64,000 bases of DNA. Source: Thermoplasmatales archaeon SW_10_69_26. Lineage in GTDB: Archaea; Thermoplasmatota; SW-10-69-26. This document shows, one piece after another, positions 7,177-63,748 of this stretch; the stretch's first letter is position 1; each line of letters opens with the position of its first letter. The DNA lies in the NCBI GenBank assembly GCA_003009755.1, contig PXUB01000003.1:25667-89666 (forward strand), in the 5' to 3' direction. The notes beneath the pieces were generated by a model. The model ran no database searches. It was given only the letters and a program-made list of their open reading frames with translations, and was not told the DNA's origin. The position numbers and the translations under genes are program-made.

Positions 7177-7671
7177 TTGCCGCCCAGTTGGGGCACACCT
7201 CTGACTGCTCCGGCCGCCGCCGACCATGGCGCTGGACAGAAGTTCGTGGAGATGCAGGTTGGGCAAGCGCCGCTCCCGACGGCTGGCAACCACGTTCACC
7301 TCGACCCCGCCGACCCGGTCGGCACAGAGCGGACCGTGGCGACGTTCGAGGTCCCCGACCACGACGATCGGTTCTACCTGCACGTGACCGAGGTCCAGAC
7401 CAACGGCGCGGCGGTCGAGTTCAGCGACCGCATCACCGCCGTCAGCCCCGACGGTAACCGAAGCGAGGTCGGCGGCTACACGCCGAACGGCAACTTCGTC
7501 GCGGTCTGGGCCTGCTACGATCCCCCGGCTCCGTTCTGTTCGGATGAGCGCCATCCCGGCCTGGATCCACCCCACGTGACCGAGGCCGGAGACGGGGAGT
7601 ACGAACTCCGGTTCGTCGGCCTCACGTCCCTCAGCTACACCGTCTCCGTGTACGGGTTCGTCGACGGATAG
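7177..7671 (+). CDS. Secreted-family paralogue lacking its signal peptide
   Basis: Predicted 164 residues. From AAADHGAGQKFVEMQVG onward it aligns with the next gene (AADDGAGETFVEMEIG), and both end in YTV..YG. The signal peptide of the neighbour is absent: the frame opens at a TTG only a few bases from the start of the divergent repeat protein. It is probably an N-terminally truncated duplicate and may not be expressed. The C-terminal YELRFVGLTSLSYTV resembles the strand pattern of pre-peptidase C-terminal type domains; that comparison is tentative. Confidence 0.5.
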   Translation: MPPSWGTPLTAPAAADHGAGQKFVEMQVGQAPLPTAGNHVHLDPADPVGTERTVATFEVPDHDDRFYLHVTEVQTNGAAVEFSDRITAVSPDGNRSEVGGYTPNGNFVAVWACYDPPAPFCSDERHPGLDPPHVTEAGDGEYELRFVGLTSLSYTVSVYGFVDG

Positions 7672-7680
7672 TCCCCGAAG

Positions 7681-7690
7681 TCCTTATCCA
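7681..7690 (+). promoter_or_regulatory. TATA-like promoter element
   Basis: TCCTTATCCA is centred about 26 bases before ATG 7712, which places transcription initiation at or next to the start codon. This fits a leaderless archaeal promoter. Confidence 0.5.
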
Positions 7691-7711
7691 CGCCGAGACG
7701 GTTCGACTGAC

Positions 7712-8230
7712 ATGCGATGGAGGTCCGGGCTCGCGGTCTGGGTCGGTCTAGCGATGGCGTTGCTGGGGATGGCTCCGGTCGCCGCCGACGACGGCGCCGG
7801 AGAAACGTTCGTCGAAATGGAAATCGGTGACGCACCGGCACCTACCGTCGGGTACACGACCGAGACGGACGGCGGTTTTCCCGCCGACCGGGGACGCACC
7901 GTGGACACCTTCGAGGTGCCCGACCGCTTCGACGAGTTCCACCTCTACATGACCGAGAAGCACACCGAGGCCACGACGCGCGCCGAGGTGTGGGAGAGCT
8001 TCACTGCTGAGGCGCCCAGCGGGGCCTCGGTCCAGGTCGGCGGCCACACCGGCGGCACCGGGTTCGGGTTCAGCACCTGCCTCCCGCCGGCGGTGTCCTG
8101 CACGTACGAGAAGCACCCCGGATCGAACCCGAACTACGTCAAGCCGGCCGAGGACGGAACCTACGAACTCCGGGTGGAGGGCGTCGTGACCGGCACCTAC
8201 ACGGTCACCGGCTATGGGCTCAGCGGGTGA
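7712..8230 (+). CDS. Secreted protein of unknown function
   Basis: Predicted 172 residues with a clear signal peptide (SGLAVWVGLAMALLGMAPVAA, cut near AA-DD). The mature part has two cysteines (FSTCLPPAVSCTY) and a C-terminal strand-rich stretch GTYELRVEGVVTGTY. It is the intact partner of the truncated copy at 7177-7671; the pair arose by tandem duplication. Confidence 0.75.
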   Translation: MRWRSGLAVWVGLAMALLGMAPVAADDGAGETFVEMEIGDAPAPTVGYTTETDGGFPADRGRTVDTFEVPDRFDEFHLYMTEKHTEATTRAEVWESFTAEAPSGASVQVGGHTGGTGFGFSTCLPPAVSCTYEKHPGSNPNYVKPAEDGTYELRVEGVVTGTYTVTGYGLSG

Positions 8231-29798: not shown

Positions 29799-30090
29799 GT
29801 GCGCGCGATAGCGGTCGTCTCGATCCATCCCATCGGCGAGGGGGCCAGCCTCGGCGACGAGATCCGAGACGATCGAAGTCCTCGAGGACGGCGGCCTCGA
29901 GCACGAGGTCGGCCCCAGCGGCACCACGATCCTCGGCGGCTGGGACGAGGGGATGGCCACGCTCGAGCGCTGCAACGAGGCCTTGGGCGCCCCCGAGACG
30001 CGGGTCAACACCGTGATCGAGGTCGACGCCAAGCCCGGCCTCGACCCCGGCGACATCGAGGCGAAGGTCGACCGCGGGACCGGTCCCTAA
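29799..30090 (+). pseudogene. Frameshifted second MTH1187-family gene
   Basis: VRAIAVVSIHPIGEGASLGD is read in one frame and, from about 29870, ETIEVLEDGGLEHEVGP, SGTTILGGWDEG and RVNTVIEVDAKPG in another. A single-base change near 29868 separates them. It is either a recent pseudogene or a sequencing error. The two copies align along their whole length. Confidence 0.75.
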
Positions 30091-30800
30091 ACATGAATCG
30101 CTACGGGCCGGCCCGTCTGCGGGTCCTCGTCGGGAACCTCGGGCAACCGGCCGGCCTCGCCCTCGGCCACGCGGTGGGCCGACCAGGCGGCGATCGAGGC
30201 GTCGAGCACGTCGCGCGGGCTCATCCGGCCGACGCCACCGAGCGAGCGCGTGGGCCGCAGCCCGGCTTCCGCCAACAGCGTCAGCCGTTCGTAGGTGGCT
30301 CGCGCGCCGCGCCCGTAGGTCTCCAGCGGCCCGCCCTCGCCGCGTGCGTCGTTGAGCGCCAGGTAGGAGACCTCGGGGTGCATCTCGACGATCCGATGAT
30401 CGTCGCCGGCGGCCTCGTTCACCGCCAACAGCCGCTGGCGGCCGGCGAACATCGGCTCCGCGGGCTGCGGGCAGCCCTGCTCCTCGGCGATCCGGCAAGC
30501 CTGCTCGTAGCTGTCGACCTCGAACACGGCCAACGGCGGCGTCCAGAACACGCGCTCGCCGGCCTCGCCCAGCGCCTCGCGAGCGGCCACGTCGGCCCGG
30601 CGGCGGCCATCGCGCTGGTTGCCCTCGGGGTCGTCGTGCCCGATCGGGACGTCGACGGCGATCGTGTCCGCGCCCTCGGCGGCGTCGAGCAGCTCGTCGA
30701 GCTGGTCGAAGCGGCGGATCGCCGCCAGCGAGCCGTCCTGCAGCTCGACGGCGACCCAGGCGTCCGGCTGGCGGGCGTCGACGCCCAAGACCCTCGTCAC
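30087..30800 (-). CDS. DUF429 family protein (copy 1)
   Basis: Predicted 237 residues. The RNase H-like fold is indicated by VLGVDARQPDAWVAVEL, IAVDVPIGHDD and VEMHPEVSYLAL; relatives are annotated as predicted nucleases. The acidic residues in GVD and AVDVP are kept. It shares the tail DPQTGRPVAIHV with two neighbours (DPRTGR.VA.H). Its stop overlaps the damaged thiamine-binding gene. Confidence 0.75.
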   Translation of the reverse strand: MTRVLGVDARQPDAWVAVELQDGSLAAIRRFDQLDELLDAAEGADTIAVDVPIGHDDPEGNQRDGRRRADVAAREALGEAGERVFWTPPLAVFEVDSYEQACRIAEEQGCPQPAEPMFAGRQRLLAVNEAAGDDHRIVEMHPEVSYLALNDARGEGGPLETYGRGARATYERLTLLAEAGLRPTRSLGGVGRMSPRDVLDASIAAWSAHRVAEGEAGRLPEVPDEDPQTGRPVAIHV

Positions 30801-30840
30801 GCGCCCGGCAGAACGCCGGGCCCGTTTGTACGTGACGGCC

Positions 30841-31206
30841 TCAGCAGGTGGAGTGGATCAAGGCGCCGACGTCGGCGTCCTCGGCGAGCTCGTTGTACCG
30901 CTCGACCGCCGCGTTCGACTCGAGCACCTCGGTCTCGATGCCCTGTTCCTCGAGCCAGGCCAGCGTCTGGTCCTGCACCTGCAGGCGCTCGTTCTGGCCG
31001 CGGGAGAGGATGATGCGCTGGGCCCCCTCGTCGACGAGCTCCTCGACGTCCCCGATCTGGATGCCGGGGACGTGGCTGGTGCCGGTCTCGTTCCAGTTCC
31101 AGCCGCGAGCGCCGCCGGGCCACAGTTTCGCGTCGCGGAACGAGCCGTGGCCCTCGACGTCGACCTGGCCCCACGACAGGTCCTCGATCGTTGGTGGCTT
31201 CTCCAT
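30841..31206 (-). CDS. Mth938-domain protein
   Basis: Predicted 121 residues: DLSWGQVDVEGHGSFRDAKL, then RIILSRGQNERLQ, then NAAVERYNELAED and GALIHSTC. This is the Mth938/NDUFAF3-like fold of unknown biochemical role. The C-terminal Cys and Asn-Glu pattern are typical. It sits between two DUF429 genes on the same strand, with gaps of about 40-50 bases. Confidence 0.75.
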   Translation of the reverse strand: MEKPPTIEDLSWGQVDVEGHGSFRDAKLWPGGARGWNWNETGTSHVPGIQIGDVEELVDEGAQRIILSRGQNERLQVQDQTLAWLEEQGIETEVLESNAAVERYNELAEDADVGALIHSTC

Positions 31207-31254
31207 CGTCGACCCTCGTGCTGGCAAGCGGGTCCCGGCTACATGGGTGCTGGG

Positions 31255-31950
31255 TCAGGCGTGCACGGCGACCAGGCGACCCGTGCGCGGGTCCGAGGGC
31301 GGGTCCCCGGGCAGACGGCGGGCCTGGCCGCGGCTCACGCGGTGGGCGGTCCAGGCGGCCGCGCAGGCGTCCAGCGCCGGGCGCGGGTCGTGGTCGGCCG
31401 GTTCCACCTCCTCCGGGTGCAGGCCCTCCCCGTGCAGCCGCTCCAGCCGCTCGTCGAGGGCGGCCCACGAGCTGCCGTAGTGCTCGGGCGGGCGCCGACC
31501 CGCGCCCATGTGGGCGAAGCTGACCTCCGGATGCACCTCGACCAGGCGCTGGTCGCGACCGGCGCGGTCGGCCAGCGCCGCCAGCCGGTCGGCGGCGAAC
31601 CACAGCGCGGCCTCGAGCTTGGGCCAGCCGCGCTCCCGGCACATCGCCAACGCCTCGTGGTACGTGTCGGTCGCGAACACGGCCGGCGGTGGCAACACGA
31701 AGAACCGCTCGCCGGCCTCGCCCAGCACCTCGCGCGCGGCCACGTCGCAGGCCCGCCACCCGTCGCTCTCGCCTCGGGGGTCCTCGTGGCCGAGGGGCAC
31801 GTCGACGGCGATCGTGGCCACCTCATCATCGGCCGCCAGGGCCGCGTCGAGATCCCCGGCCGCGTGCAGGTCGACGAGCTCGCCGTCCTCGATCTCGGCG
31901 ACCCAGAACGGGGCTCGTCCGCGAGCGTCGACGCCTTGGACCCGCACCAC
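31255..31950 (-). CDS. DUF429 family protein (copy 2)
   Basis: Predicted 231 residues. VQGVDARGRAPFWVAEIEDG, IAVDVPLGHEDPRGESDGW and VEVHPEVSFAHM align with copies 1 and 3. Divergence among the three is high, so duplication is old. GTG 31950 starts it. Confidence 0.75.
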   Translation of the reverse strand: MVRVQGVDARGRAPFWVAEIEDGELVDLHAAGDLDAALAADDEVATIAVDVPLGHEDPRGESDGWRACDVAAREVLGEAGERFFVLPPPAVFATDTYHEALAMCRERGWPKLEAALWFAADRLAALADRAGRDQRLVEVHPEVSFAHMGAGRRPPEHYGSSWAALDERLERLHGEGLHPEEVEPADHDPRPALDACAAAWTAHRVSRGQARRLPGDPPSDPRTGRLVAVHA

Positions 31951-31984
31951 ACGCTCGCGAACCCGGGTCCGGGTTGAAGACTGT

Positions 31985-32701
31985 TCACACGTGGATCGCG
32001 ACCGCTCGCCCCGTGCGGGGATCCGTGGGCGGATCGGTGGGCACCGTCCGCGCCGCCTCGCGTCTCACCCGTCGGGCGACCCAAGCGCAGGCGGCCGCGT
32101 CGACGACGTCGTGGGCGCGGGCCCGCCCGGCCTCGCCGGCCTCGCGGGGCAGCTCGATGCCCGCCGCCGACAGAAGCGACAGCCGTGCCCACCGTCCCCG
32201 CCAGGACCGCTTGGATCCGATCGCGAGGTCGGGGTCGTGGGTTCCAGCCATCGCCTGGAAGGCCAGTTCGGGGTGAGCCTCCACGAGGCGCGGGTCGCCG
32301 GTGGCCACCTCGCGGACCTCGCGGATGCGGTCGGCCAGCGCCCAGGCTTGGCGGGAGGGGGCGATCGTGTCGCGCTGGCGGGCCCGATCGACGGCCGCCT
32401 CGTAGGTCTCGGCCGCCATCACGTCCGGGGGCGGGACGGGGAAGACCGAGGCGGCCCTGTCCCCCAACAGGTCGCGAGCGCGCTCGTCGGCCCGCCGGCG
32501 GCCGTCGGCGTCGCCGTGGGGGTCCTCGTGCCCGATCGGGACGTCGACGGCCACGGCCTCGGCGGCCGGGTTGGCGTCGAGGGCTTCGGTCAGCTCCTCG
32601 ACGAAGGACAACGCGGGTGAGGCGTCCTCCGCCAGGCGGCACACGAGCCAGCCTTGGACCGAACCCATGCGAGCACCGTCGACACCGAGCACGCACGACA
32701 T
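31985..32701 (-). CDS. DUF429 family protein (copy 3)
   Basis: Predicted 238 residues. CVLGVDGARMGSVQGW, VAVDVPIGHEDPHGDADG and VEAHPELAFQAMAG define the family. Start ATG 32701 follows the upstream GNAT gene by about 11 bases, so the five genes from 33279 to 30087 may be one transcript. Confidence 0.78.
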   Translation of the reverse strand: MSCVLGVDGARMGSVQGWLVCRLAEDASPALSFVEELTEALDANPAAEAVAVDVPIGHEDPHGDADGRRRADERARDLLGDRAASVFPVPPPDVMAAETYEAAVDRARQRDTIAPSRQAWALADRIREVREVATGDPRLVEAHPELAFQAMAGTHDPDLAIGSKRSWRGRWARLSLLSAAGIELPREAGEAGRARAHDVVDAAACAWVARRVRREAARTVPTDPPTDPRTGRAVAIHV

Positions 32702-33775: not shown

Positions 33776-34117
33776 CTAGACGGAGGCGCCGTCCTCGATC
33801 GGGAACAGGGGACAGTCGGGTCCGCACTGGAAGGGTCCGTTGTTCAGCTCGAACTCGCAGTCGCCCTCGTGCTCGAGCAGGGTGTTCGTGTCGGCCAGGT
33901 CCTGGCAGGCCTGCTCGTCGTGGACGATCACGGAGGGGCAGCCGTCCGAGCCGTCGACGGTGACGTAGCGGCCCTCCTCGTGGAAGAGGTAGACCTGCGT
34001 GCAGTTGTCGGGCTGCTTGCCGGGGATCTCGGTCTCCGCGCCGGCGAGGGGGGCGGTCAGCGCGGAAGCCAGCAGGCCAAGCGTCGCGATCGCGAGGATG
34101 GTGGTTCGTAGGTTCAC
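33776..34117 (-). CDS. Secreted cysteine-rich protein, shared-leader family (6 Cys)
   Basis: Predicted 113 residues. The leader VNLRTTILAIATLGLLASAL closely matches those at 34301, 35288 and 36294. The mature part has six cysteines and a C-terminal NNGPFQCGPDCPLFP that resembles GPFEPCPQSHCPP of the gene at 36294. GTG 34117 is chosen because it starts the shared leader. Export and disulfides are likely; the function is unknown. Confidence 0.72.
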   Translation of the reverse strand: MNLRTTILAIATLGLLASALTAPLAGAETEIPGKQPDNCTQVYLFHEEGRYVTVDGSDGCPSVIVHDEQACQDLADTNTLLEHEGDCEFELNNGPFQCGPDCPLFPIEDGASV

Positions 34118-34300
34118 GGGAACACCGCCCACGCCAAATCCAGGCCAAGGCAAATCTCTTGCGGTGCCGACGCAGCGAGGATCGCTCTCCCGCGGAACGT
34201 TCCCACGATGGGTCGAAGCCTCGGACGCGGGATCGAGGCTAGCCGTCAGGGGTGAAGAGGGAGAGGGAGCGGACCGGTCGCGTCCGGCCCGCCGGGCCGA

Positions 34301-34603
34301 TCACTTCTCGATCGGGGTCGAGGAGGCCTCGGAGTCGATCACCGGGCAGGTACAAACGGGGTTGCAGGGGATGGTGGTGACGAGCTGGCAGGGGTCCGTC
34401 TCGATCGCGCAGGCGATGAACATCGGCGTCGCGTCTGTGCACGTCTCGTTGACCTCGTCCTCGATCGCCTCGCGGCAGTCGTCGGTGTCGTCGTGGACGT
34501 TCTGGGGCTCGCAGGTCGCCTCGCTGGCGCTCGCGGTGGCGGTGAACGCGGTCGCGAAGAGGCCGAGCGCGGCGACGGCCAGCAGCGTGGTTCGAAGCTT
34601 CAC
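34301..34603 (-). CDS. Secreted cysteine-rich protein, shared-leader family (8 Cys)
   Basis: Predicted 100 residues. The leader VKLRTTLLAVAALGLFATAF is near-identical to its neighbours. The mature part has eight cysteines, ending PCNPVCTCPVID, and no similarity to known enzymes. An in-frame GTG at 34612 would add three residues. Confidence 0.72.
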   Translation of the reverse strand: MKLRTTLLAVAALGLFATAFTATASASEATCEPQNVHDDTDDCREAIEDEVNETCTDATPMFIACAIETDPCQLVTTIPCNPVCTCPVIDSEASSTPIEK

Positions 34604-34667
34604 GTCGATCACTCGGCGGGCCAGGCCGGCTGGGCCCGATAGTCGTTGCGGATCCCGCTCGGTGCGC

Positions 34668-35156
34668 TCACGTCGATGCCCTCGTGGGCGAGGCCGCCTC
34701 GCCCGCGCGATGCTCCTCGAAGACGGCGACCGCGTCCGAGAAGACCTCGGTGAACATCTGCTTCCAGTTCGGGATCATGACGCGCTGGGCGAGCTTGCCT
34801 GGGAGGTGATCGTAGCTGATCGTCGAGCGGATCTCCAGGTGGGCGCCCGTCTCCGTGGCGGTCACCTCGTAGCGGTCGACGATCTCGAACCCGGGCCCGG
34901 GGACGACGAACCGCCACCGTCCGGGCCCCTCGTCGTGGAGGGTCTCCTCGAGCGTGAACGTGAGCCCCATCGGTCCCCGCCACTCGGTCTCGTAGACCGC
35001 GCCGTCCTCGGTCGTGGCGAGCCGCTCGATCCGATGCGGCTGCTCGCGGGGGTCCTCGGCCTCGTACACCTCCGGAAGGTCGGTCCACCACTGCTCCAGG
35101 CGCTCGGGCGAGGCGGCGACGTCGAAGCCGAGGACGAGCTCTTCGGGTTCCACCAT
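34668..35156 (-). CDS. SRPBCC (START-like) family protein
   Basis: Predicted 162 residues: ELVLGFDVAASPERLEQWWT, TFTLEETLHDEGPGRWRFVV and a C-terminal helix WKQMFTEVFSDAVAVFEEH. This is the ligand-binding helix-grip fold. A CTCTATCATC element lies about 30 bases before the start; GTG 35162 is an alternative start. It is embedded among the secreted-protein genes. Confidence 0.75.
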   Translation of the reverse strand: MVEPEELVLGFDVAASPERLEQWWTDLPEVYEAEDPREQPHRIERLATTEDGAVYETEWRGPMGLTFTLEETLHDEGPGRWRFVVPGPGFEIVDRYEVTATETGAHLEIRSTISYDHLPGKLAQRVMIPNWKQMFTEVFSDAVAVFEEHRAGEAASPTRAST

Positions 35157-35287
35157 CGCCACACCGACGGGACGGTGCGGGGGATGATAGAGCTTGGCCC
35201 GGACGTTGACGGCCAGCTCCGCTCGCTTGGCGGAGGGTGAACGGAAAACAGAGCGCGGGGGCGGCCCCCGCTCGGTGGGACGACGGC

Positions 35288-35557
35288 TTACAGGAACCGG
35301 GGGTGCGGGTCGCAGGTGCAGGTGCAGAACAGGCGAAACTCCTCGCAGGGGTGGAACTCCGGCGAGCAGTCCACGCTGTATTTGAGGACGGTCTCCTCGC
35401 AGACGAGGGCCCGAACGTCGTCCTCGTCGGGCAGGTCTTCCTCGTCGGGCAGGTTGTCCTCGTCGGGGAGGTCGTGGTTGGCGCTGGCGGAGGGGGCAAA
35501 CGCGGTCGCAAACAGGCCTACGGCGGCGAAGGCGAGAACGATCGTTCGGGGGTTCAT
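35288..35557 (-). CDS. Secreted cysteine-rich protein, shared-leader family (6 Cys)
   Basis: Predicted 89 residues. The leader MNPRTIVLAFAAVGLFATAF is followed by three acidic repeats (LPDEDN, LPDEED, LPDEDD) and a short domain with six cysteines ending CTCTCDPHP. ATG 35557 is clear. Confidence 0.75.
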   Translation of the reverse strand: MNPRTIVLAFAAVGLFATAFAPSASANHDLPDEDNLPDEEDLPDEDDVRALVCEETVLKYSVDCSPEFHPCEEFRLFCTCTCDPHPRFL

Positions 35558-35644
35558 CCAAACACCGACGGATCAACGCCGGTCGAGGCGAAAAGGCTTG
35601 CGAAGCCCGCCGCGGCCTCGGCCCGCTGGGGTGACGTGCCGGTC

Positions 35645-35908
35645 TCACTGCTCGAGGACCTGCTCGAGCAGCTCGCGCTGGGTCTCGATCTGCTCCTGCA
35701 TCTGCTCCATCTGCTGGAGCGCCTGCGTGAGCCGCTGTTGGCTCTCGACCGCCTCCTCGAGCTCGGGTCCCGTGTCCTTCAGGAACTCGCGGATCGCCCG
35801 ACGCACGACGGCGGTCCGGCTGGGGTACTCGCCGGCCTCGACCAGCGCGTCCATGAACTCCACGTCCCGGACCGGGATCCGGGTCGTGATCCGCTGGGTG
35901 TCGGGCAT
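35645..35908 (-). CDS. Ribbon-helix-helix regulator with coiled-coil tail
   Basis: Predicted 87 residues. ITTRIPVRDVEFMDALVEAG and SRTAVVRRAIREFL form a CopG-type DNA-binding domain. The Gln/Glu/Leu-rich tail (QQRLTQALQQMEQMQEQIET) is a coiled coil for oligomerisation. It could regulate the surrounding secreted-protein genes. A GTATTTGG element lies upstream of ATG 35908. Confidence 0.82.
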   Translation of the reverse strand: MPDTQRITTRIPVRDVEFMDALVEAGEYPSRTAVVRRAIREFLKDTGPELEEAVESQQRLTQALQQMEQMQEQIETQRELLEQVLEQ

Positions 35909-35956
35909 GGGAGCCGGACCCATGCTTTGGTCGGCTGGCCCCAAATACGTTCGGGT

Positions 35957-36215
35957 GCTAGGCGAGGTCCCCGCCGCGCCGGGCCCCGAGCGTCCATCGA
36001 CGGTAGGCATCGCCGGAGGCCACGATCGGGTGTAGACCTTCGACGGGATCGGGCGTCCCCGGCGCCTGCCGGTCGACGAACGCCACCCCTGCCACCAGCC
36101 CCAGACCGACGGCCAGGCCAGCGACCGGCTCCCACCCCGCGAGCTCGGGTCGCTCCCGTCACCGGAAAGCGTCGTTGTAGAAGGCCCACTGGGCCGCGAG
36201 ACCGCCCCTCGGTCC
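35957..36215 (-). other. Degenerate minus-strand frame, possible membrane-protein remnant
   Basis: Minus-strand reading gives LAGWEPVAGLAVGLGLVAGV, then AFVDRQAPGTPDPVEGLHPI and a stop near 35958. An in-frame stop and no good start lie upstream (AFYNDAF before it). It looks like a decayed gene rather than a live one. Confidence 0.3.
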
Positions 36216-36293
36216 CGAGCTTGGGGGTGGTTGATCAGGGAGGAAAGAGGGAAGGAGGGGCCAGCTGGCCCCGGGTCGGTCGACGGTGGGGGC

Positions 36294-36662
36294 TCAGTCC
36301 TGGCCGGGCTTGGGCGGGCAGTGGCTTTGCGGGCAGGGCTCGAAGGGACCGTGGTCCTCGCAGAACGTGAGCGCGACCCCGAACTCCCCGGTGTCGCAGG
36401 CGTTCTGCGGATCGTCGAGGACGCCGTTCACGTACTCGCAGTACGTGGATGGGACGTGGATCCCGTCGGGGTCGAGCTCGCAGGGCACGTCGGCCGGGGG
36501 ATCCTGGGTCTGGTCGTCGACGTTGCACTGGATGCCGTTGGGTTCACCGTGCGGGTACACGGCGCAATCGACCGGGCCCGGCTGGGCGGCCACGGCGGGA
36601 GCGAGCCCAGTGGCGAACAGACCGGTAGCCGCGATCGCGAGAAGCGTGGTCTCGAGATCCAT
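36294..36662 (-). CDS. Secreted cysteine-rich protein, shared-leader family (8 Cys)
   Basis: Predicted 122 residues. The leader MDLETTLLAIAATGLFATGL is again of the shared type. The mature part has eight cysteines; GEPNGIQC recurs in the damaged copy upstream. ATG 36662 starts the leader. Its C-terminus GPFEPCPQSHCPP resembles that of the 33776 gene. Confidence 0.73.
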   Translation of the reverse strand: MDLETTLLAIAATGLFATGLAPAVAAQPGPVDCAVYPHGEPNGIQCNVDDQTQDPPADVPCELDPDGIHVPSTYCEYVNGVLDDPQNACDTGEFGVALTFCEDHGPFEPCPQSHCPPKPGQD

Positions 36663-36719
36663 GAGATACCATCGCGAGCAGTCCCGCTGACCGGCAAAAG
36701 CGTTACGCATCACCGGCAC

Positions 36720-36875
36720 CACGGTGCCGAGCGGGGCGTCTCGTGGACCGTCCACGGCCCCTTCGATGCCGTTGGGTTCACCGTCGGCAGCCATCCCAGT
36801 CGACAGGGCCATGCTGGTCGGCCTCGGCGGGAGCGAGCCCGGTGACGCGGCATCGAGCCCGAGGATTGACAACAT
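36720..36875 (-). pseudogene. Truncated paralogue of the shared-leader secreted family
   Basis: Minus-strand sequence repeats parts of the 36294 gene: GATGCCGTTGGGTTCACCG (36764-36782, also at 36529-36547) and a GGCGGGAGCGAGCCC block. The reading MAADGEPNGIEGAVDGPRD matches PHGEPNGIQCNVDDQTQD but lacks the cysteine and the leader. It is a broken copy. Confidence 0.6.
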
Positions 36876-36896: not shown

Positions 36897-37283
36897 GTGC
36901 GCGTCATCAGCGTCTCCCTGCCCGAGGACACCGTGGACGAGCTCGACCGGCGAGCCGACCAAGACGGATACAGCGGCCGCAGCGAGCTCGTGCGCGCGGC
37001 ACTGGGGCCCTTCCTCGATCAGGCTCGAGGCGAGGAGGCACGCGAGGGACCGGCCACGGCCACGCTGGTCCTCGCCTACGACGAGGAGATCAGCGATCTC
37101 GTGAATCGGCGCCGCCACGATCACGCCGAACCGATCACGACCATGGTCCACGGGCACACCGATGATCATCGGTGCCTGGAGGTCCTCGTCCTCGAGGGGG
37201 GAAGCGACGAGATCCGGTCGTTGGCGAACGACCTGCGGGGCCGCCCGGGGATGAACCAGGTCGAGCTGACGTGGCTCGACTGA
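36897..37283 (+). CDS. NikR-family metal-responsive repressor
   Basis: Predicted 128 residues. The N-terminal ribbon-helix-helix reads MRVISVSLPEDTVDELDRRA and GRSELVRAAL. The C-terminal ACT-like domain carries His74, His85, His87 and Cys93, with exactly the 11-2-6 spacing of the nickel site in E. coli NikR (His76, His87, His89, Cys95). It lies directly before the znu-type operon, so it probably controls metal import. Nickel or another divalent ion is possible. GTG 36897 has ACATATCG 20-24 bases upstream. Confidence 0.87.
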   Translation: MRVISVSLPEDTVDELDRRADQDGYSGRSELVRAALGPFLDQARGEEAREGPATATLVLAYDEEISDLVNRRRHDHAEPITTMVHGHTDDHRCLEVLVLEGGSDEIRSLANDLRGRPGMNQVELTWLD

Positions 37284-37334: not shown

Positions 37335-37354
37335 GGAGGGGGGTGGCAGGCGTG

Positions 37355-38371
37355 ATGACGCGCCGATTGCTCCCCCTGCTCGCCGCGACGCTGCTCGCCA
37401 CCGCCGGTTGCGTCGGCCCCCTGACCGACACCGGCGATAGCCCCGATGTCCTCGTCACCCACTACCCCATCGAGTTCCTCGCCTCCGAGATCGCCGGCGA
37501 CGATGTCGACGTCGACGCCTTCGTCGAGGGGGGCCAGCCCCACGACTTCAACCCAGGCTTCGAGGACAGGTCCGCCCTCGAGGACGCGAGCCTGGTCGTG
37601 TACCAGGGCGCCGGCTTCTCGCCCGGCGTCGAGGGGATGCTGGCCAGCGCCGGCGAGGACGGGCCGCCCTCGCTTGCCCTCGTCGACACCGTCGACACGA
37701 TCGTTCACGAGGACGAGCACCGTCACGAGGCTGAGGAAAACCATTCCAACCACGAGGACCGCGACGGTGGCGACCAGGACGAGCACCACGAGAGCGAGCA
37801 CGAGCGCGAGCACGACGAGCACGCGGAGGGTCGCGAGGACCCGCACACCTGGCTGGACCCCGTGCGCATGACCCAGCACGCCGAGGCGATCCGCGACGCG
37901 ATGCAGGAGGCCTTCCCCGAGCACGAGGAGGCCTTCGCGAACCGGACCGCCGACCTCGTCGACGACCTCGAGGCCCTCCACGGGGACTTCGAGGCCGGCC
38001 TCGCGACCTGCGAGGTCCGGACCGCCGTCGTCAACCACAACGCTTTCGCTTACCTCGGAGACCGCTATAACATCACCTTCGAGGCCGCCCACGGGCTCTC
38101 GCCCGACACGGAGCCCTCGGCCGAGACGATCGACCGCCTCGCGGAGATCGTCGACCACCACAACCTCACGACCGTGTTCTTCGAGGAGTTCGTCAGCCCG
38201 GAGGTCGTCGAGACGATCGCCGACGAGACCGGCGCCGACACCGAGGTCCTCTCGCCCCTCGCGGCGCTCACCGACGAGCAGCGCGCCGACGGCGAGACCT
38301 ACCTCACCCGCATGCGAGCCAATCTCCACGCGCTCGAGGACGCGATGCGCTGCACCTCCTCGGGGGCGTGA
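37355..38371 (+). CDS. znuA: Metal ABC transporter substrate-binding lipoprotein (ZnuA type)
   Basis: Predicted 338 residues. The lipobox LLATAGC anchors it. VTHYPIEFLASEIAGD and GGQPHDFNPGFED start the cluster A-I fold. A long His/Glu/Asp-rich loop (about residues 125-165) and DPHTWLDPVRM, NHNAFAYLGDRY mark zinc-type binders. ATG 37355 is preferred over GTG 37343. Confidence 0.88.
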   Translation: MTRRLLPLLAATLLATAGCVGPLTDTGDSPDVLVTHYPIEFLASEIAGDDVDVDAFVEGGQPHDFNPGFEDRSALEDASLVVYQGAGFSPGVEGMLASAGEDGPPSLALVDTVDTIVHEDEHRHEAEENHSNHEDRDGGDQDEHHESEHEREHDEHAEGREDPHTWLDPVRMTQHAEAIRDAMQEAFPEHEEAFANRTADLVDDLEALHGDFEAGLATCEVRTAVVNHNAFAYLGDRYNITFEAAHGLSPDTEPSAETIDRLAEIVDHHNLTTVFFEEFVSPEVVETIADETGADTEVLSPLAALTDEQRADGETYLTRMRANLHALEDAMRCTSSGA

Positions 38372-41754: not shown

Positions 41755-43092
41755 TCAGCTCCTCGTCTCGGCCACGATCGGGACCGGCTCGCCGGGACGA
41801 AGCGTCAAGCTCGGATCCAGCGGCGGGCGCTCGTCGCGGCCCGGCCGGATCTCCATCGTCTGCAGGATCCGGGCCAGGCACAGACGCAGCTCGAGCATCG
41901 CGAACGTGTCCCCGATGCACGTCCGCGGTCCGCCACCGAAGGGGAAGTGCGCGAACCGCGGCTTGTCTCCGGCTCGCCCATCCAGCCAGCGCTGGGGGTC
42001 GAAGGTCCCCGGCGCCTCCCACAGCTGGGGATCGCGATGGACGACCCACTGGCTCGTCATCACCTGGGTCCCGGCGGGGAGCCGACGCCCGGCGATCTCG
42101 ACGTCCTCGACGGCTTGCCGCCCGATGGCCCACACCGGCGGTAAAAGCCGCATCGCCTCGTCGATCACGGCGTCGAGCAGGCCCACGTCGGCGAGGGCCG
42201 CTGGCGTGGCGTCCCCGCCGGCGTGGCTGGCCAGCTCCTCGGACAGCTCGGCCTGGATCTCGGGGTGGCTGGCGAGCAGCCACAACGTCCACGTCAACGC
42301 GAGCGCGGTCGTTTCGTGCCCGGCCAACAGGAAGGTGACGAGCTCGTCCCGCAACCGGGAGCGGTCCATCGCTTCCCCGTGCTCCCGGTAGTTCTGGATC
42401 AACCGGCTCATCAGGTCCACGCGGTCCTGGCCGGGCTCGTGCTCGTCGATGAGGTCGTCCACGACGCCGTGCAGCGTCTCGACGCCGCGCTGGTAGCGCC
42501 GGTTGGCCGGCAGCGGCCAGGACTTGGGCACCATCGCCAGCAGGCGCCGGTCGGCCCGGAACCGCTGCATCACGTCGTCCAGCGCGGCGCCGATCTCGTC
42601 GGCCCGGTCGTCCACGTCGACGCCGAACAGCGTCTCGGCCGCGATGCGGAGCGTGAGCTGGCTGGCATCCTCGTGCAGGTCGCGGTGGCCGTGGCGTCGC
42701 CAGCCGTCGAGCAGGTCCTCGGTGTGCCCGACCATCGGTCCAGCGTAATCGCGCACGCGCTCGGGCCGGAAGTCCGGCTGGGCGAGCTGGCGCTGGGTGC
42801 GCCAGGTTCCCCCCTCGGCAGCCAGCAGGCCGCCCCCGATCACGTCCCCGAGCGTGTCGCGCAGGTACTCGTGCTTCTCGAAGCTGTCGTCCTCGGTCAC
42901 GAGCACCTGCTCGATCCCCGCCGGGTCGGCGAGCAACACGTAGTCGAGGCCGCCCATCCGGAACCGAGCCAGGGAGCCGTGCTCGCTTCGCAGCTCGGTC
43001 AGGAACGCCAGCGGCTCGCGGCTGAAGCTCGGGATCGAACCCACGATCGGCCAACCGTCCTCGCCGGGGAGCTGCTCGTAGGCAGACGCCAC
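41755..43092 (-). CDS. Cytochrome P450 (oxygen-activating class)
   Basis: Predicted 445 residues. The I-helix AGHETTALALTW, ExxR (DEAMR), the PERF-like DPQRW and the haem loop FPFGGGPRTCIG are all present, so unlike the CYP152 gene this should be a classical monooxygenase needing a redox partner. The start LPGEDGWPIVGSIPSF lies near the N-terminus with no membrane anchor. GTG 43092 is used. The substrate is unknown. Confidence 0.87.
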   Translation of the reverse strand: MASAYEQLPGEDGWPIVGSIPSFSREPLAFLTELRSEHGSLARFRMGGLDYVLLADPAGIEQVLVTEDDSFEKHEYLRDTLGDVIGGGLLAAEGGTWRTQRQLAQPDFRPERVRDYAGPMVGHTEDLLDGWRRHGHRDLHEDASQLTLRIAAETLFGVDVDDRADEIGAALDDVMQRFRADRRLLAMVPKSWPLPANRRYQRGVETLHGVVDDLIDEHEPGQDRVDLMSRLIQNYREHGEAMDRSRLRDELVTFLLAGHETTALALTWTLWLLASHPEIQAELSEELASHAGGDATPAALADVGLLDAVIDEAMRLLPPVWAIGRQAVEDVEIAGRRLPAGTQVMTSQWVVHRDPQLWEAPGTFDPQRWLDGRAGDKPRFAHFPFGGGPRTCIGDTFAMLELRLCLARILQTMEIRPGRDERPPLDPSLTLRPGEPVPIVAETRS

Positions 43093-62665: not shown

Positions 62666-63748
62666 ATGCGCTACGCCGGCATCGACATCAGCAACAACCG
62701 CTTGGACCTGTGCGTGGTGGACGAGACGGGCGACGTCGTTCACCGAGACGAGCTTGCGAACAACGAGGCGGGCTACGAGGAGTTGACCGAACTCCTCACC
62801 CCCGAGGATCCGATCGGGCTCGAGGTTGGCACGTTGGCCTACCCGGTGCACGATTTCATGGTCGAGCGAGGCTACACCGTCCGGTTGGGCGATTCGCAGC
62901 GGATGAAGACGATCTGGCAGTGCGATCAGAAGTTCGACGGCAAGGACGCCTTCGAGATCGCGGATCTTCTTCGGATCGACAAGTTCCCCGAGGTCCACAT
63001 CCCCGACCCGGACGTGCTCGAGGCGCGCGAGTTGATTCGGGCGCGCAAAGACGTGGTCGAGCAGTGTACGCAGGCCAAGCAGCGGTTGGGCTCGTATCTG
63101 CGTCGGGAGGGGATCGATCCGCCGTTCGGCTCGGATGCATTGTACGGGGAGAAGGGACGAGCGTGGCTGCGTGAGCAGGATCTTGACGCAAAGAAGCGGT
63201 CGTTGATGGAGGCGCACTTGGCGCAGATCGAGGCTCTCGAGCCGCGGGTCGAGGAGTTGGATGAGATGGTGGCCGGGTTGATCGTGGATGATGCGATCGT
63301 GGATCGGCTCGTCTCGATCCCCGGCGTAGGGCTGCATAATGCGGCGGTGTTGCGTTTCGAGGTCGGGTCGATGGAGCGCTTCGACACGATCGGGCACTTT
63401 CGAGCCTACGCGGGTGGAGCTCCCCGGAATCGGCAGAGTGGTGGGCCGGCGCGGCAGGAGGGGCCGGTGCGTCGGTGCAACAAGCGGGTGAAGGCGGCGG
63501 TGGGGATCGCGGCGGAGTCGGCGGCAGTGAAGACGAAGGGCGAGAATCCGGTGAAGGCGATCTATCGCAAGCAGCGGGGCAAGGGCAAGCCTCGCAGCAA
63601 TGCTCTTGGACATGCTCGGGGGAAGATGTGCAACACGATCTATGCGGTCTGGACGAAGGGCGAGGAGTGTCGGTGGGGGAGTGAGGCGACGGCGGAGAAC
63701 AAGCGGTTGAAGATTAAGCGTCTGGCTCGCCGGGGGTCGGCTTCATGA
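62666..63748 (+). mobile_element. IS110-family transposase (DEDD recombinase)
   Basis: Predicted 360 residues. The RuvC-like N-terminal domain has Asp7 (YAGIDIS), Glu53 (GLEVG) and Asp91/Asp94 (KFDGKDAFE), the DEDD tetrad. The C-terminal transposase_20 domain has SIPGVGLHNAAVL, FRAYAGGAPRNRQSGG with the family serine, and a basic tail. Codon use is less GC-rich (many TTG, GCG and GAG triplets with A/T) than its neighbours. GGAGGAG lies just upstream. It is complete in the window. Confidence 0.88.

What the first reader, a model, noticed from the sequence alone, without database searches (positions are those of the whole stretch)
33776..36875. Cluster of four secreted proteins with one shared leader and divergent cysteine-rich mature parts
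Genes at 33776, 34301, 35288 and 36294 all begin with a leader of the form RTTxLAxAAxGLFATAF. Their mature domains differ strongly but carry 6, 8, 6 and 8 cysteines, and some keep C-terminal GPFxxC...CP traces. A fifth, broken copy lies at 36720-36875. A conserved export signal with fast-changing disulfide domains is typical of secreted toxins, bacteriocins, adhesins or phage-exposed surface proteins. A CopG-type regulator and an SRPBCC protein are interleaved. I know of no described archaeal family with these features.
Basis: partly seen in the sequence, partly recalled or inferred. Interest (0 to 1): 0.75.

Follow-up and report, generated by a model that had tools for sequence, protein, structure and literature searches.

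The report
Archaeal cluster of disulfide-rich secreted miniproteins
A high-GC archaeon carries four neighbouring genes for small exported proteins that share one export signal but whose cysteine-packed bodies have diverged beyond recognition; no relative was found in any collection searched, so it is a real but functionally unknown family, perhaps used against other microbes.

Summary
Four minus-strand genes (33776-34117, 34301-34603, 35288-35557, 36294-36662) share a 26-residue Sec-type leader. A leader profile finds exactly these four in the whole genome (E ≤ 2e-11; next best 0.27). Similarity starts at the start codon and stops at the predicted cleavage site. The mature parts (63-96 aa, 7-11% Cys, 6/8/6/8 Cys, net charge -15 to -17) do not align above shuffled sequence, except that B and C share a cysteine framework (p = 0.0005). 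A decayed fifth copy of D at 36749-36847 is real (z = 25; two 1-base deletions). All four genes also share a promoter-like element at about -46.

New evidence: predicted secreted proteins here favour even cysteine counts (41:11 versus 93:96 for the rest), and the genome encodes VKOR and a DsbA-like protein, so the cysteines are probably disulfide-bonded. "Fast-changing" is not shown: leader synonymous sites are near saturation, so the paralogues may simply be old. No homologue appeared in any collection searched.

Most likely reading: a lineage-specific family of exported, disulfide-stabilised miniproteins born by tandem duplication, with an antagonist (archaeocin-like) role the leading but weak guess. 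Metal-related or surface roles are not excluded. Structure prediction failed.

The parts
33776..34117 (-). Gene A: 113 aa, 26-aa leader, mature part with 6 Cys (C-x20-C-x10-C-x15-C-x10-C-x3-C), net charge -17
34301..34603 (-). Gene B: 100 aa, leader plus mature part with 8 Cys (C-x11-C-x11-C-x9-C-x6-C-x7-C-x3-C-x1-C), net charge -15
34668..35162 (-). SRPBCC (Polyketide_cyc2) protein interleaved between B and C; no role shown
   Evidence: Pfam PF10604, E 1.5e-6; start choice
35288..35557 (-). Gene C: 89 aa, leader, acidic spacer of three 18-nt repeats (35417-35473), then 6 Cys (C-x10-C-x6-C-x6-C-x1-C-x1-C), net charge -15; shares a Cys framework with B
35645..35908 (-). Ribbon-helix-helix regulator interleaved between C and D; resembles haloarchaeal CdrS below the curated cut-off
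   Evidence: RHH_8, RHH_1; NF058555, 41.3 bits, cut-off 100
36294..36662 (-). Gene D: 122 aa, leader plus mature part with 8 Cys (C-x12-C-x14-C-x13-C-x13-C-x11-C-x8-C-x4-C), net charge -17
36749..36847 (-). Decayed partial copy of D (end of leader to 'GEPNGI'), two single-base deletions, a Cys codon changed, no start
   Evidence: (D3, D4)
34149..34163 (-). Promoter-like element of A: CGCAAGAGATTTGCC, starting 46 nt before the start codon
34639..34650 (-). Promoter-like element of B, weaker: CGCAACGACTAT, starting 47 nt before the start codon
35587..35602 (-). Promoter-like element of C: CGCAAGCCTTTTCGCC, starting 45 nt before the start codon
36693..36707 (-). Promoter-like element of D: CGTAACGCTTTTGCC, starting 45 nt before the start codon

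Best explanation
A, B, C and D are a paralogous, lineage-specific family of exported miniproteins. Each gene appears to have its own start of transcription with a shared core-promoter element (inferred). The conserved leader is a Sec signal peptide cut at the A-x-A site (inferred), and the 63-96 residue product is folded outside the membrane by disulfide bonds, probably with the genome's VKOR/DsbA-like oxidation system (inferred). The array grew by tandem duplication, as the decayed copy of D shows. After duplication the leader stayed under protein-level constraint while the body drifted or was replaced, keeping only many, even-numbered cysteines and strong acidity. The most likely use is as released, protease-resistant effectors towards other cells, i.e. 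archaeocin-like antagonists (inference, roughly 0.35-0.4 for this use; export plus disulfide bonding alone about 0.85).
For: Leader specific to these four genes in the whole genome and far above other leaders of the genome; repeat confined to the leader. Mature parts 7-11% Cys against 1.1% for other predicted secreted proteins and 0.8% for all genes in the sample. Even-Cys excess in the predicted secretome 41:11 versus 93:96 elsewhere, Fisher p = 1.3e-4. VKOR and Thioredoxin_4 proteins present. B/C Cys framework p = 0.0005, before correction for six pairs. Decayed copy of D. Shared upstream element exceeds all 150 random gene quartets; its strict form occurs only three times in 2.8 Mb, all in front of these genes. 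No relative in held genomes or libraries.
Against: No immunity gene, transporter or processing protease was recognised next to the genes. The bodies are strongly acidic, unlike most membrane-active antimicrobial peptides (general knowledge). No comparison with strains or sister species was possible, so diversification within the lineage cannot be measured. Only one genome has the family, and AlphaFold2 gave no usable model.
Confidence: 0.38

Rival explanations
1. Old housekeeping-type paralogues: small extracytoplasmic disulfide proteins with no role in conflict (for example envelope, matrix or stress proteins). The leader is conserved by constraint on export, and the bodies drifted under weak constraint.
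For: Leader synonymous divergence is near saturation, pS 0.42-0.64 in a GC3-rich genome, so much time has passed; no conflict-associated neighbours recognised.
Against: Signal peptides usually drift faster than bodies in ordinary secreted paralogues (general knowledge); here the order is reversed.
Confidence: 0.35
2. Metal-related secreted proteins: the neighbours are NikR and a zinc-type ABC uptake system, and the cysteines bind metal outside the cell.
For: NikR at 36897-37283 and ZnuA at 37343-38371 lie next to D; Cys-x-Cys motifs in B and C.
Against: Those neighbours are on the opposite strand; the secretome-wide even-Cys bias points to disulfides, not free thiolates. The nearest relative's ZnuA lies at a contig end, so gene order could not be tested.
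Confidence: 0.12
3. Leader shuffling: one signal-peptide-plus-promoter cassette was copied in front of unrelated cysteine-rich bodies, so the bodies are not homologous at all.
For: Similarity stops at the cleavage site and bodies are no more alike than shuffles.
Against: B and C share a Cys framework, and the decayed copy of D includes body as well as leader.
Confidence: 0.12

Closest known systems
Halocins / archaeocins of the halocin C8 type (recalled; archaeocins are discussed in PMC8416519, which cites Makarova et al. 2019)
   Same: Small, exported, cysteine-rich archaeal proteins
   Different: No match to any NCBIfam model; 6-8 Cys rather than the ten recalled for HalC8; no twin-arginine motif; no recognised immunity part; four divergent paralogues side by side
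Conotoxin-type precursor superfamilies and fungal small secreted Cys-rich proteins
   Same: Conserved signal peptide with divergent disulfide-rich bodies
   Different: Unrelated organisms and sequences, no propeptide seen; rapid diversification not shown here
VARTIG hypervariable modules of Thermococcales (PMC8416519)
   Same: Archaeal exported proteins with one constant and one variable part
   Different: Large Ig-domain proteins with variable C-terminal parts and many genomes to compare; no sequence relation was sought

Membership tests
Halocin C8-type archaeocins | Sequence match to a curated bacteriocin/halocin model | tested here: not met
   No such family hit at E <= 10 in NCBIfam and none in Pfam at E <= 1. 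That NCBIfam holds a halocin C8 model is from memory.
Halocin C8-type archaeocins | Adjacent or fused immunity function | tested here: inconclusive
   Neighbours are SRPBCC, RHH, GNAT, NikR and ZnuA; immunity proteins are rarely recognisable by sequence.
Halocin C8-type archaeocins | Growth inhibition of related cells | not testable with these tools
   Needs purified protein
Paralogous family with a shared Sec leader | Leader similarity above genome background | tested here: met
Paralogous family with a shared Sec leader | Homologous mature domains | tested here: inconclusive
   Only the B/C cysteine framework is significant; sequence is not
Fast-diversifying secreted toxin family | Mature dN/dS above leader dN/dS among close relatives | not testable with these tools
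   No close relative carries the genes; leader dS is near saturation
Known enzyme or structural fold | Sequence or fold match | tested here: inconclusive
   No sequence match in PDB; models too poor to search (pLDDT 48 and 44)

The most novel reading that the evidence does not exclude
An archaeal counterpart of venom-type gene families: a constant promoter-leader module feeding duplicated, diversifying disulfide miniproteins used in conflict with other microbes.
Probability: 0.2. Interest if true: 0.8.

Novelty: new variant of a known kind. Interest (0 to 1): 0.42.

Why it matters
Archaeal antagonistic peptides are few and poorly sampled. Four natural variants on one export signal would be a compact, directly testable set of disulfide miniproteins from a lineage with few held genomes, and the even-cysteine signal suggests that this lineage has an oxidising secretome.

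Tried and rejected
Family libraries (Pfam, NCBIfam, PHROGs, PADLOC) and PDB sequences gave no credible match. Weak profile hits in class relatives were read and are ordinary signal peptides or unrelated frames. Hits in G057 and G048 are weak (E 0.002-0.004): the frames read at the first are not secreted Cys-rich ORFs and the second contains stops. A pattern scan of GTDB contigs and of viral contigs confirmed nothing; the SRPBCC neighbour likewise. Gene order in the closest relative could not be read because its ZnuA lies at a contig end. AlphaFold2 on single sequences of B and D failed, so no fold search was run. The whole genome was not available as a file; about 320 kb of other stretches was taken instead as background. 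Makarova et al. 2019 itself is not held.

Full report
What is there. The minus strand carries four short genes in one direction: D (36294-36662), C (35288-35557), B (34301-34603) and A (33776-34117), with a ribbon-helix-helix regulator between D and C and an SRPBCC protein between C and B. All four pass a codon-usage coding test trained on the same genome. The genome is archaeal by its uS10, aIF1A and GMP synthase subunit A.

The leader. The first 26 residues are alike in all four. Against 70 other secretion-like leaders from 384 kb of this genome the family stands alone: within-family scores are 53-75, and the best outside match to a family leader is 33.5. A leader profile run over the whole genome returns these four (E 6e-16 to 2e-11) and then 0.27. 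That model was built from the same four sequences, so the independent evidence is the background comparison. At DNA level the repeat is 78 nt, begins at the start codon and ends at the predicted cleavage site. There is no twin-arginine motif or lipobox in the sequence, so Sec export and signal peptidase I are inferred.

The bodies. The mature parts have 63-96 residues, net charge -15 to -17, and 6, 8, 6 and 8 cysteines. They are four of the five most cysteine-rich predicted secreted proteins in the sample. Local and global alignments between bodies are not better than shuffled sequence, whether or not cysteines are held in place, and BLASTP finds nothing between B and C. Cysteine spacing is shared between B and C (C-x9/10-C-x6-C-x6/7-C-x1/3-C-x1-C; p = 0.0005 against random positions, p = 0.013 against shuffled gaps, both before correction for six pairs). 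The A-D 'GPF' resemblance is suggestive only.

Are the cysteines bonded? In the sample, predicted secreted proteins with cysteines outside this family have even counts in 41 of 52 cases, while the rest have 93 even and 96 odd (binomial p = 3.6e-5, Fisher p = 1.3e-4). The genome encodes a VKOR protein and a Thioredoxin_4 (DsbA-like) protein above curated cut-offs. Disulfide bonding is therefore likely but inferred.

Age and mode. Between leaders, synonymous differences are pS 0.42-0.64 and dN is 0.21-0.44. In a genome whose third positions are mostly G or C this is near saturation, so the duplications may be old and rapid change of the bodies is not required. The fifth copy at 36749-36847 is a decayed partial duplicate of D: shuffle z = 25, two single-base deletions, no start. 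It shows that duplication and loss occur in this array.

Promoters. All four genes carry CGYAA 45-47 nt before the start, followed in A, C and D by WTTT. A best-block statistic for the four upstream regions exceeds all 150 random quartets; the motif was noticed before the test was designed, so this is supportive, not blind. The strict form occurs three times in 2.8 Mb, in front of A, C and D. Similar BRE/TATA-like elements peak a few bases closer to the start in other genes, so this is probably a variant core promoter inherited with the duplicates rather than a special operator. A hairpin with a pyrimidine-rich tail follows A and C, but the number of such sites is not above shuffle expectation.

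Relatives. None of the proteins has a convincing relative in 97 related genomes (A and D), in the six other class members (profile, B, C), in the pattern scan of GTDB contigs, in viral contigs or, for D, in plasmids. Family libraries and PDB sequences are silent. Only one other member of the same taxonomic family is held, and it is 75% complete, so absence from the nearest lineage is weak evidence.

Meaning. Export, disulfide bonding and common origin of the leaders are well supported. Function is not. Antagonism is favoured slightly because leader-constant, body-variable, disulfide-rich sets are typical of effectors (general knowledge); an ordinary envelope or matrix role is nearly as likely, and metal handling is possible given NikR and ZnuA next door.

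Noticed in passing
window 30087-32692 (-): Three tandem DUF429 paralogues (30087-30788, 31255-31950, 31985-32692), with a small gene at 30841-31206 between the first two.
   Followed up: partly
window 7246-8230 (+): Two adjacent predicted genes with a shared motif of the form VEM(Q/E)(V/I)G(Q/D)AP.PT and no Pfam match.
   Followed up: no
L051:15295-15618 (+) (G000 contig C45): Another small predicted secreted protein with 6 cysteines in about 111 mature residues, not alignable with the family.
   Followed up: partly
window plus L041-L056 (384 kb sample of the genome): Strong excess of even cysteine counts in predicted secreted proteins (41:11), absent from other proteins.
   Followed up: yes
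window 62666-63748 (+): IS110-family transposase near the contig end.
   Followed up: no
window 41755-43092 (-): Cytochrome P450 in an archaeon whose best NCBIfam hits are terpene oxygenases, below cut-off.
   Followed up: no
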